Shown: in pieces, positions 2,583 through 15,062 of the stretch
How the letters are laid out: every line of letters starts with the position of its first letter
Position numbering within the stretch: the stretch's first letter is position 1
DNA from: Sulfurimonas sp.
GTDB lineage: Bacteria > Campylobacterota > Campylobacteria > Campylobacterales > Sulfurimonadaceae
Reading direction: 5' to 3'
Length of the DNA: 32,127 nucleotides
Assembly: GCA_027083035.1 (NCBI GenBank)
Contig: JALWSY010000008.1
Location: 1-32,127 of the forward strand
Notes under the pieces: generated by a model
The model's database searches: none
The model's input: only the letters and a program-made list of their open reading frames with translations
Told to the model about the DNA's origin: nothing
Program-made: the position numbers and the translations under genes

Positions 2583-3393
2583 TGAACTAAGACCTCACCT
2601 TGTTGAACTAAGAAAGAGATTGGCTATCTCTATTGCAAGCCTTATTGTTATGTTCTTTGTTATGTTCTTTTTTCATGAACCAATACTTAACTGGATTGTA
2701 GAGCCTCTCAACACCGCACTTATAGAGGTAGGTAAAAAGTCTATCCACGCAGCAGACGGTATGGTGACTACCTCACAGGTTGGTGGAGCTTTCTTTGTAG
2801 CACTCAAAGTCTCCTTTTTTGCTGCTATTTTAGGTGCCATTCCTATTATCCTCTCACAGATTTGGATGTTTATAGCTCCGGGACTTTATGCAAATGAGAA
2901 AAAGATGGTTATCCCTTTTGTAGTAGGTGGAAGTGTTATGTTTTTAGCGGGTATTCTCTTTGCCTACTACATTGTAACTCCTTTTGGGTTTGACTTTCTC
3001 ATTACCTTTGGTAGTTTCAAGTTTACTCCACTTATCAACATAGAAGATTATGTAGGCTTTTTCACAAAGATAATGTTCGGTTTTGGTATCGCTTTTCAGC
3101 TTCCTGTATTTGCTTACTTTTTAGCACTCCTTGGACTTGTCAATGACAAACAGATGATGGCATTTTTTAAGTATGCTATCGTCATTATCTTTATAGTTGC
3201 AGCGCTTCTTACACCACCAGATGTACTGACACAGTTGCTTATGGCGGGGCCGCTTATTATTTTGTATGGTCTCTCCATCGTTATTGTTAAAATGGTAAAT
3301 CCTGCAGAGGATGAAGAAGAAGAGGACGATGAGGAAGAGGATGATGCAGATGAGAGTCTGCAAGAGTCTCTTCCAAAGAGTAGTGAGGCGTAA
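2575..3393 (+). CDS. tatC: Sec-independent translocase protein TatC
   Basis: HLVELRKRL N-terminus and multiple TM segments; overlaps tatB by 8 nt; acidic C-terminal tail. Confidence 0.95.
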   Translation: MFDELRPHLVELRKRLAISIASLIVMFFVMFFFHEPILNWIVEPLNTALIEVGKKSIHAADGMVTTSQVGGAFFVALKVSFFAAILGAIPIILSQIWMFIAPGLYANEKKMVIPFVVGGSVMFLAGILFAYYIVTPFGFDFLITFGSFKFTPLINIEDYVGFFTKIMFGFGIAFQLPVFAYFLALLGLVNDKQMMAFFKYAIVIIFIVAALLTPPDVLTQLLMAGPLIILYGLSIVIVKMVNPAEDEEEEDDEEEDDADESLQESLPKSSEA

Positions 3394-3397
3394 GTAG

Positions 3398-4429
3398 GTG
3401 TCCCAAGATGCTGAACTTCTCACACAAAGCTATAACTTCTCTCTCCCTGAGGAGCTTATAGCTACCCATCCTGCACATCCGCGCAATCATGCAAAACTTT
3501 TAGTTTACGACAGAGCAACAGACACCATTACACATACTCACTTCTATGAGCTTGAGAAGTTTATTCCAAAAGGTTGCGCCCTTATCTTCAATGATACCAA
3601 GGTAATCAAAGCGCGTCTTTTTGGAAAAAAACCGAGTGGTGGAAAAATAGAGCTACTGATAAATAGAGCGCTTGATGCACATAATGTAAATGTCTATATC
3701 CGCGGCAAAGTTAAAGAAGGGAGTGAGATTTTTTTTGAGCAAAACCTCAAGGCAGTAGTGCAGAGCCTGAATGAAGATGGCAGCAGAGTAGTACGCTTCT
3801 ACCAAGAGGAGAGACTCCTGCGCTTTGAAGAGTTACTTCCTATTATAGAGATTATCGGGCATATTCCACTCCCTCCCTATATCAACAGAGCTGATGCAGC
3901 TGAGGATGCAGATGAGTATCAGAGTGTCTTTGCAAGAGCCGAGGGAGCAGTTGCCGCACCTACAGCCTCGTTGCACTTTACAGATGCACAGCACAAAAGA
4001 GTGTGTGAAAAGTTTCAACACGCTTATGTTACTCTACATGTAGGAAGCGGTACCTTTAAACCTGTTGACGCCGAAATAATCACCCAGCATCCTATGCACG
4101 CTGAGTATTATGAGATATCACAAGAGGCAAAAGAGATTTTGGACTCAGATACTCCAATTTTAAGTGTTGGCACAACCTCTACGAGAACGATAGAGTATTA
4201 TGCCAAACATGGAGGAGTGCAAAGAGGCGAAGCAAATCTCTTTTTACATCCAAAAAACAGACCAAGTAGAGTGAACCATCTACTCACAAACTTTCACCTC
4301 CCAAAATCAACACTACTGATGCTTGTTGCATCATTTGTGGGACTTCAAAAGACACAGGAGTTATACGCCCAAGCCATTAAAGAGAAGTATCGTTTTTACT
4401 CTTATGGCGACGCGATGCTTATCCTTTAA
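3398..4429 (+). CDS. queA: S-adenosylmethionine:tRNA ribosyltransferase-isomerase
   Basis: FNDTKVIKARLFG, VTLHVGSGTFKPV and TNFHLPKSTLLMLV motifs; GTG start. Confidence 0.96.
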   Translation: MSQDAELLTQSYNFSLPEELIATHPAHPRNHAKLLVYDRATDTITHTHFYELEKFIPKGCALIFNDTKVIKARLFGKKPSGGKIELLINRALDAHNVNVYIRGKVKEGSEIFFEQNLKAVVQSLNEDGSRVVRFYQEERLLRFEELLPIIEIIGHIPLPPYINRADAAEDADEYQSVFARAEGAVAAPTASLHFTDAQHKRVCEKFQHAYVTLHVGSGTFKPVDAEIITQHPMHAEYYEISQEAKEILDSDTPILSVGTTSTRTIEYYAKHGGVQRGEANLFLHPKNRPSRVNHLLTNFHLPKSTLLMLVASFVGLQKTQELYAQAIKEKYRFYSYGDAMLIL

Positions 4430-13200: not shown

Positions 13201-13827
13201 CTATATTTTCTCCAATATTTTCGTCAAATCTTTCTCTTTTATGATTATATTTGCCTCTTTTTCTAAAATCTCTCTAGCACAAAATGCCACGCGTGTCCCT
13301 GCATGAGCGAACATACTCAAATCATTTGCTCCATCTCCACATACAAGTGTCTCCGCTTCGCTCACTCCTAAGATATTTTGAAGTCTCACCAGCATATCTC
13401 CTTTAGAGAAGTTAAACATCATATCGCCACCGACTAAACCAGTGAGCTTTCCATCTTTATGATGCAGGGCATTTGAGAAGTCTGCATCATAATCGAGAAT
13501 ATCTTTGGCATACGAAGTCGCTGTACGAAATCCGCCACTAAAACAGACTACTTTTATGCCTCTGCTCTTTAACGCAGCTATGGTCTCTTTTGCCCCTTTC
13601 ATATAGGGCAAATTATGGGAGATTTTCTCAACTACTGAGTAGTCAAGCCCTTTGAGCAGTCCTACTCTCTGCTGGAGTGACTCAAAAAAATCAAGTCTGC
13701 CACTCATCGCCTCTTCTGTGATGCGAGCCACCTCTTCACCAATTCCCAACTCCTCAGCAAAAAAATCAATCGTCTCACCATCCATAAGTGTCGAATCGAA
13801 ATCAAATACAGCCAGTTTTAAACTCAT
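13201..13827 (-). CDS. serB: phosphoserine phosphatase (HAD family)
   Basis: FDFDSTLMDGETIDFFAEELG, VVCFSGGFRTAT, CGDGANDLSMFAHAGTRVAFCA. Confidence 0.93.
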   Translation of the reverse strand: MSLKLAVFDFDSTLMDGETIDFFAEELGIGEEVARITEEAMSGRLDFFESLQQRVGLLKGLDYSVVEKISHNLPYMKGAKETIAALKSRGIKVVCFSGGFRTATSYAKDILDYDADFSNALHHKDGKLTGLVGGDMMFNFSKGDMLVRLQNILGVSEAETLVCGDGANDLSMFAHAGTRVAFCAREILEKEANIIIKEKDLTKILEKI

Positions 13828-13857
13828 ACTTACTCTCTTTTGTTATAATTGTGCAAT

Positions 13858-14127
13858 TAGACTTATTACAGTACAAAAGTGTATCATAAATAGGCTTTAA
13901 AGAGGTAAGACTGTACAAAACTTTTTTTGAAGCGTAGCCAAAGCTACGGTGATGAAAAATTTTGTGCAAGATTGCCTCTTTAAAGCCTACCCTTCGGGCT
14001 TTACACATTTGCTCATACTCTGCGTTAACACTCCTTGAATTAGCTACGGCTAGTCCTGCGTCGTGTTGCCTTGATTATGAACAAATGTGTAAAGTTTATG
14101 ACACACTTTTATACTGTAACAAGTCTA
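13858..14127. repeat. ~270 bp self-complementary element with three nested stems (candidate MITE-like or structured-RNA element)
   Basis: Outer arms 13858-13890 / 14095-14127 (30 of 33 complementary); inner arm A 13891-13920 / 13960-13989 (25 of 30); inner arm B 13998-14016 / 14077-14095 (17 of 19); terminal hairpins cgtagc-caaa-gctacg (13933-13948) and tagc-tacg-gcta (14041-14052). Confidence 0.85.
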
Positions 14128-14150
14128 CCATAACTAAAGAGGACTTTTAT

Positions 14151-15062
14151 TTGTTTGATACTTTAATAGATAAACTCAATAACAGCACATATATAACCCT
14201 AGAGACAACTCCGGGACACTCTCCTGTTTTTCTGCCAACCATAGAAAAAATAGCAGAGTTAGAACTAGAAAAATATGTAGATGGATTTTCAACAACAGAT
14301 AATCCTCTCGCAAAACTAAAATACAACGCACTCTTTGCAGCAAAGATGCTCCAAGAGAGATTTCACAAGCCTGTCATAGCGACCATGGCTATGCGTGATA
14401 GAAACAAGATAGCGCTCCAATCAGACCTGCTTGGAGCCAATGAAGCAGATATCCGTGCCATTTTAGCACTCACGGGTGATCCTGCTACTATGAGTGATCA
14501 ACCCCATACAAAGGGTGTTTTTGAGGGGGATAGCACCCTACTTCTTGACATCATCTCCGCTTTTAACTCTGGAATGAACTATGCCGGAAAACCTTTAGCT
14601 CATGCACCCAAGCATATCTCCCCCTTTGCAGTAGTAAACTCCTATGCAAAGAATCCTAAAACACTCCAAAAAAAGATTCAAAAAAAGATAAAACATGAAG
14701 CTGTTGGTATCATCACACAACCTGTTTATGATGTAGAAAATGCCAAACTGCTTTTAGAGTTAAAAGAGAATGCCAACAGAGAGTGTTGTCCTGATAAGAA
14801 AAAAGGGGAGATTATCTTTGGTATCTTCCCTATCACAAAACTCAGAACCGCTCAGTTTCTCTCAGCCCATGTTCCGGGCATCAATGTACCGGATATATGG
14901 ATAGAGAAACTAAGAGTTGCACATGAGAGAGGTACCGAGGAGGAGTACAAGGTAGGCTTTGAGCTGAGTAAAAATCTCTTTGAAGATTTAAAAGAGCTGC
15001 ATCCAAAGATACACCTCATGACTGCAAACCAGTTTCAAATAGCAAAAGATATACTAATATAA
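14151..15062 (+). CDS. metF: methylenetetrahydrofolate reductase
   Basis: TTG start ([24 protein letters not shown]) with SD aaagagga 7 nt upstream; 303 aa, with ALTGD and GIFPI motifs. The track start at 13962 reads through the repeat element and is probably wrong. Confidence 0.85.

What the first reader, a model, noticed from the sequence alone, without database searches (positions are those of the whole stretch)
13858..14127. ~270 bp almost entirely self-complementary element forming a three-way junction between serB and metF
Seen directly: outer stem 13858-13890 pairs with 14095-14127 (30 of 33). Arm A (13891-13920 with 13960-13989, 25 of 30) starts at the next base. Arm B (13998-14016 with 14077-14095, 17 of 19) abuts the other side of the outer stem. 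Arms A and B are separated only by ~8 nt (CCCTTCGG). Each arm ends in a small hairpin containing the shared core AGCTACGG (13942 and 14042). This is far beyond a terminator and encodes no plausible protein. It resembles a non-autonomous mobile element (MITE) or a structured RNA/ssDNA element. The three outer-stem differences are transitions that would all be G-U wobbles in a minus-strand transcript, which weakly hints at RNA-level pairing (chance about 1 in 4).
Basis: partly seen in the sequence, partly recalled or inferred. Interest (0 to 1): 0.82.

Follow-up and report, generated by a model that had tools for sequence, protein, structure and literature searches.

The report
Fold-back mini-transposon with swappable ends
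The sequence is a 268-base piece of non-coding mobile DNA that jumped between two genes in a Sulfurimonas-like bacterium; it belongs to an apparently undescribed family whose Y-shaped fold and hairpin caps are kept across many genera while the ends that a transposase would recognise have been exchanged for unrelated ones.

Summary
The element is 13859-14126 (268 bp), inserted between the divergent genes serB and metF. All 29 relatives compared have a short spacer without it; in the nearest one the length difference is exactly 268 + 3 bp. Copies occur in 13 of 68 Campylobacterota genera sampled. In 83 distinct two-arm copies the arm caps lie 105-110 nt apart, and most copies are 266-274 bp. All three stems covary strongly. 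It is a MITE (non-autonomous transposon). Its end class (T2, AGACTTCTTGCA..) shares ends and a 3-bp ANT target duplication with IS5-family insertion sequences in related genomes. Two things are unusual. First, the same two-arm core sits inside at least four different end classes; one pair of copies is about 95% identical in both arms but has both ends replaced, at the junction base. I propose that the fold-back core is the persistent unit, and that copying one arm onto the other keeps it paired and lets it change transposase. Which transposase moves this copy, and what the caps do, are not shown.

The parts
13859..14126 (.). whole mobile element, 268 bp, three-way fold-back
   Evidence: filled site 324 bp minus empty site 53 bp (G017) = 271 = 268 + 3; class-wide 3-bp repeat at this boundary
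13856..13858 (.). left target-site repeat ATT
   Evidence: class T2 shows 3-bp repeats in 30 of 57 copies, shuffled mean 10.3, maximum 17; empty site in G017 reads ..ATTATAACT..
14127..14129 (.). right target-site repeat, now ACC (2 of 3 differ from ATT)
13859..13890 (+). left terminal inverted repeat / outer stem (diverged class T2)
   Evidence: 29 of 32 complementary to 14095-14126
14095..14126 (-). right terminal inverted repeat / outer stem
13891..13989 (+). arm A, 'type 2' hairpin (TTGTGCAAAA-like stem)
13931..13952 (+). conserved cap AGCGTAGC-CAAA-GCTACGGTGA of arm A
   Evidence: cap motif shared by 34 arms; CM hit G000:C8:13905-13978, E 9.6e-15
13990..13998 (.). linker mini-hairpin CCCTTCGGG between the arms
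13999..14094 (-). arm B, 'type 1' hairpin (AAGGC/AACG internal loop), opposite orientation to arm A
14041..14054 (-). apical cap of arm B (TTAGCTACGGCTAG)
13844..13849 (+). TATAAT box retained left of the insertion (context; promoter function inferred)
   Evidence: two facing boxes conserved in the empty sites of relatives
13201..13827 (-). serB (context)
   Evidence: SerB homologue found in 58 of 61 genus genomes
14151..15062 (+). metF (context; probable TTG start at 14151)
   Evidence: name taken from the finding

Best explanation
The element is a non-autonomous DNA transposon (MITE) of a Campylobacterota-wide family. Its ends are of class T2. They match the ends and the 3-bp ANT target duplication of IS5-family insertion sequences (HTH_Tnp_4 + DDE_Tnp_4) in related genomes, so a transposase of that kind most likely moves it in trans. 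This copy landed in the serB-metF divergent spacer. The interior is not taken from the insertion sequence. It is a conserved module of two different long hairpin arms at fixed spacing, each capped by AGCGTAGC-NNNN-GCTACGGTGA, in inverted orientation; with the outer stem they form a three-way fold-back. Proposed mechanism (inferred): the fold works at DNA level (hairpin or cruciform) and brings the two ends together for the transposase. Copying of one arm onto the other (fold-back correction) keeps the arms complementary and can also spread a newly acquired end to the other side, so the core can change from one transposase system to another. Shown: insertion, dispersal, ends and target duplications, covariation, strand symmetry, exchange of ends on a near-identical core. 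Inferred: mobilisation in trans, DNA folding in the cell, the conversion mechanism, and the role of the caps.
For: Empty sites: serB-metF spacer is 51-64 bp in the relatives and 324 bp here; nearest relative 53 bp, difference 271 = 268 + 3. Copies in 25 of 61 genus genomes by DNA search, up to 12 listed per genome; 29 of 398 high-quality genomes and 13 of 68 genera of the phylum by covariance model. Target repeats: T1 4 bp in 19 of 37 (shuffled 5.7, maximum 10); T2 3 bp in 30 of 57 (10.3, maximum 17). Partner: G305 holds four 913-bp insertion sequences with ends AGACTTCTTTCATAACCC and AAT/AAT flanks, proteins HTH_Tnp_4, DDE_Tnp_4, NF033581 IS5 family; in G322 contig ends show AGACTTCTTGCAAAACTC running into a transposase-like start (MNKYERLQKKEAKN..), the same end as its MITEs. 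Architecture: cap spacing 105-110 nt in 83 of 83. Covariation: 457 double-changed cells v 150 shuffled and at most 112 slid; score 0.521 v 0.179. Exchange of ends: L162 (T1) v L131/L013 (T2), arms 94-96% identical, outer 30 nt about 57%, breakpoints at CTCAG/CTGAG on both sides. 84 of 90 cap pairs have like ends and none has two different classes. Strand symmetry 78 v 77.
Against: No intact insertion sequence with the window copy's own ends was found, and searches of G000 for DDE_Tnp_4 and DDE_Tnp_1 were negative. No partner was found for class T1; partners of T3 and T4 were not sought. The right target repeat differs from the left at 2 of 3 bases. Fold-back conversion is not observed directly; the symmetric wobble is also expected if nothing selects the pairing and only correction or recent amplification maintains it. 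Many genomes are fragmented metagenome assemblies.
Confidence: 0.82

Rival explanations
1. The MITE carries a functional structured RNA: it spreads as a transposon, but the fold is selected in transcripts, for instance as an RNase III substrate or mRNA stabiliser as proposed for NEMIS elements.
For: Strong covariation in all stems. Conserved U.G/G.U columns in the type-2 arm and purine mismatches next to the cap. The cap-sense strand folds better as RNA in 34 of 34 arms. 67 of 69 copies lie outside open frames, where they could be co-transcribed.
Against: G.T and A.C are equally common in pairs predicted on both strands, overall (78 v 77) and per stem (33 v 26, 20 v 17, 25 v 34). The G.U excess is confined to one arm subtype (34 v 7), absent in the others (12 v 9). 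The arms are in opposite orientation, and the linker loop occurs as TTC or GAA on either strand. No Rfam family reaches its gathering score; no terminator-like site.
Confidence: 0.2
2. Ordinary MITE whose arms are complementary only because quasi-palindromes are corrected by template switching; no selection on the fold, and the core is merely old.
For: Wobble is strand-symmetric, as correction would give. Perfect arm complementarity coexists with sequence divergence.
Against: Correction without selection should also erase the specific internal mismatches and caps, yet these are the most conserved positions, and cap spacing is 105-110 nt in 83 of 83 copies across end classes and genera.
Confidence: 0.25
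3. A REP/REPIN-like element moved by a RAYT (HUH) transposase as single-stranded DNA.
For: Inverted pair of imperfect hairpins with conserved mismatches.
Against: Has terminal inverted repeats and 3- or 4-bp target duplications, which HUH transposition does not make (established knowledge); ends shared with DDE insertion sequences.
Confidence: 0.03

Closest known systems
MITEs moved by a co-resident insertion sequence, e.g. MITEAba12 / ISAba12 in Acinetobacter (PMC6382973)
   Same: short, non-coding, inverted-repeat ends matching an insertion sequence, target duplications, AT-rich sites
   Different: MITEAba12 is 113 bp with one end class and 9-bp target duplications; here a 268-bp core with conserved two-arm fold occurs inside several end classes
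CIR elements of Caulobacter and Brucella (as reviewed in PMC2229807)
   Same: two long hairpin arms joined by a linker, phylogenetically conserved fold
   Different: the review describes CIRs as lacking the 5'-3' outer stem; CIRs carry GANTC, which the window element lacks
Correia/NEMIS, ERIC, RUP, YPAL-type elements (PMC2229807)
   Same: intergenic, TA-rich ends, strongly base-paired
   Different: those are described as single stem-loops of about 100-200 bp with one end type per family
Insertion sequences of the IS5 family with HTH_Tnp_4/DDE_Tnp_4 transposase (NF033581)
   Same: ends and 3-bp ANT target duplication of class T2
   Different: only the ends are shared; the MITE interior was not found in them

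Membership tests
MITE (bacterial, general) | short non-coding unit with terminal inverted repeats | tested here: met
   268 bp, ends 29 of 32 complementary, frames interrupted, longest stop-free run 72 codons
MITE (bacterial, general) | multiple dispersed copies | tested here: met
MITE (bacterial, general) | target-site duplication | tested here: met
   class level: T1 4 bp, T2 3 bp far above shuffles; the window copy itself is imperfect (ATT/ACC)
MITE (bacterial, general) | empty orthologous site | tested here: met
   29 relatives
MITE (bacterial, general) | autonomous insertion sequence with the same ends | tested here: met
   class T2: G305 and G322; not found in the window's own genome with DDE_Tnp_4 or DDE_Tnp_1
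MITE (bacterial, general) | transposition in trans observed | not testable with these tools
   needs an experiment
CIR (Caulobacter) | GANTC motif in the arms | tested here: not met
   no GANTC in 13859-14126; present in 31 of 83 relatives, so not a constant feature
REP/REPIN | no target duplication, RAYT partner | tested here: not met
   target duplications present; RAYT partner not searched
Known Rfam RNA family | score above gathering threshold | tested here: not met
   none in the window; at relaxed threshold only eukaryotic miRNA models far below gathering
Intrinsic terminator | G+C-rich hairpin followed by T run | tested here: not met
   0 found in 13780-14200

The most novel reading that the evidence does not exclude
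A DNA-structure parasite: the two-arm fold-back core, not the transposase ends, is the evolving unit. It swaps its ends between unrelated transposase systems by fold-back conversion, and it carries a cap recognised by some host or transposase-independent factor common to several phyla.
Probability: 0.25. Interest if true: 0.85.

Novelty: new variant of a known kind. Interest (0 to 1): 0.6.

Why it matters
MITEs are normally seen as passengers of one transposase. Here a near-identical structured core is found with both ends replaced by another class, which has a different target-duplication length. If fold-back conversion explains this, non-autonomous elements can change transposase and outlive any one insertion sequence. 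The family also gives a large natural alignment for asking whether DNA fold-backs are selected in bacteria, and its insertion between two divergent promoter boxes makes the effect on serB and metF testable.

Tried and rejected
Rfam search: nothing. Plasmid and phage collections and IMG/VR with the cap pattern: no match. A long outer-stem pattern from the window copy in genome contigs: no match, because ends diverge fastest. First covariance model R1 had only 7 pairs and was replaced by R2. RNA-strand hypothesis: early tests favoured one strand, but they were biased by folding one strand and by one arm subtype; the balanced test removed the effect. T1 partner sought with PF01609 in eleven genomes, not found. 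Wider spread of the cap: 0 of 298 further Bacteroidota and 0 of 273 further genomes of the Wenzhouxiangella class at E <= 1e-4, so sporadic outside Campylobacterota; homology of those single-arm elements is not shown. MetF identities came from a wrong reading frame and are not used; the spacer sequences there are read directly. Papers: seven searches, no description of this family found (and reading 71-73); subscription journals and ISfinder were not available.

Full report
What is there. The described self-complementary region is real. The outer stem pairs 30 of 33; two long arms and a CCCTTCGGG linker fill the inside; the region folds about 12-14 standard deviations better than shuffles on either strand.

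It is an insertion. SerB was used to fetch the same locus from genus genomes. In 29 relatives the serB-metF spacer (or the start of it, where the contig ends early) lacks the element; it is 51-64 bp long and has two facing TATAAT-like boxes. The nearest relative, G017 (SerB 98% identical), reads ACTTACTCTCTTTTGTTATAATTGCGACATTATAACTAAAGAGGACTTTTATT. The window has the same flanks with the element in the middle: 324 against 53 bp. The difference of 271 is the element AGACTT..AAGTCT (13859-14126, 268 bp) plus a 3-bp repeat (left ATT, right ACC). The insertion separates the two boxes, so expression of both genes may have been rewired; this is inference.

It belongs to a family. The own genome holds a second full copy at C125 and a further cap hit at C117. 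25 of 61 genus genomes match at DNA level. A covariance model of the arm (R2) hits 29 of 398 high-quality Campylobacterota genomes in 13 genera. Hits come as a + and - pair about 105 nt apart, the signature of the two inverted arms. Of 83 distinct complete copies, all have cap spacing 105-110 nt, and most are 266-274 bp long.

Anatomy. Where the arm types could be assigned, 61 of 83 copies have one 'type 1' arm (AAGGC/AACG internal loop) and one 'type 2' arm (TTGTGCAAAA stem), in inverted orientation. Both end in the cap AGCGTAGC-NNNN-GCTACGGTGA. On 29 aligned copies, 81 consensus pairs include 54 with changes on both sides, and 95% of cells pair. Double-changed cells number 457, against 150 in shuffles and 63-112 in slid controls.

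Ends. Four end classes surround this core in Campylobacterota: T1 GGGCACCTCTAAAAACCC, T2 AGACTTCTTGCAWAAC, T3 ATTACGYCACCAA, T4 ACTGACCTTACGCAC; among 90 cap pairs 84 have matching classes on both sides (27 T1, 41 T2, 10 T3, 6 T4) and none is mixed. Target repeats differ by class: T1 4 bp (19 of 37; shuffled 5.7) and T2 3 bp of the form ANT (30 of 57; shuffled 10.3); T3 and T4 gave no clear length. Hence different transposases are likely.

Partner. In G305 four 913-bp insertion sequences have T2 ends (AGACTTCTTTCATAACCC), AAT on both sides, and two overlapping open frames matching HTH_Tnp_4 and DDE_Tnp_4 / NF033581 IS5 family. In Sulfurimonas G322 the same T2 end that bounds its MITEs also bounds sequence with a transposase-like start. 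The 3-bp ANT duplication agrees with what I recall of the ISL2 group of IS5; that is memory, not a test.

Exchange of ends. L162 carries T1 ends; L131 and L013 carry T2 ends. Their two arms and linker are 94-96% identical, while the outer 30 nt on both sides differ (about 57%, near chance for aligned AT-rich sequence), with the change at CTCAG and CTGAG, the base of the three-way junction. Other pairs share only one arm (97% in type 2, 68% in type 1). The core is therefore modular, and both ends can be replaced together.

DNA or RNA. If the fold were selected in one RNA strand, G.T should outnumber A.C on that strand. Early counts seemed to show this, but they were made on structures folded from that strand or dominated by one arm subtype. 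Using only pairs predicted on both strands in 50 copies, G.T 78 and A.C 77. I read this as pairing kept at a strand-symmetric, DNA level. Correction of quasi-palindromes during replication can produce this (established knowledge of template switching); the retention of specific mismatches and caps suggests that selection acts as well. This does not exclude transcripts with effects.

Mechanism and status. Shown: insertion, family, ends, target repeats, conserved fold, exchanged ends. Inferred: IS5-type transposase acts in trans; fold-back brings ends together; fold-back copying maintains complementarity and spreads new ends. Unknown: what the cap does.

Comparison. Known bacterial MITEs such as Correia, ERIC and RUP are reviewed as single stem-loops; CIR has two arms without an outer stem and carries GANTC (PMC2229807). 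MITEAba12 illustrates mobilisation by a co-resident insertion sequence (PMC6382973). The present family combines an outer stem and two arms and keeps them through changes of ends; I found no description of it, within the open literature available here.

Noticed in passing
L162 v L131, L013: Near-identical cores with different ends on both sides; the clearest natural case of exchanged ends.
   Followed up: yes
L134 near 3305-3843; L152 near 2322: Nested insertions: an element with T7 ends interrupts a T1 element in L134; in L152 a short T1-ended hairpin lies directly beside a T2 element.
   Followed up: partly
L110 902-1064; L204; L201: Shortened copies with one arm or a fused arm (about 130-165 bp) that still have intact ends.
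   Followed up: partly
G445, G450 (Flavobacteriales bins), e.g. L061, L062: More than 50 single-arm elements each, with ends ACCTTAAATCCGCAAGTG, carrying the same cap motif; 3-bp or 5-bp flanking repeats (22 and 17 of 30).
   Followed up: partly
L089 1541, L077 3349, L063 1788, L157 3403: A second repeated hairpin in the Flavobacteriales bins with apex TGCATAGCNNNNGCTATGGAAA, distinct from the cap studied here.
   Followed up: no
G447, G448 (1.1-Mb genomes; L098, L127): About 164-bp elements with ends AGAGCCTGTTCAGAATCTTTCT and the same cap.
   Followed up: no
G000:C117:921-995: A further cap hit in the window's own genome (E 7e-9), not delimited.
   Followed up: no
window 13962-14150: The metF reading frame stays open upstream through arm B of the element, so an automatic start call could make MetF too long.
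   Followed up: partly
G322 contig starts (e.g. C13, C21, C56): Many contigs begin about 80 nt inside a T2-ended repeat, so copy numbers in draft genomes are underestimates.
   Followed up: no
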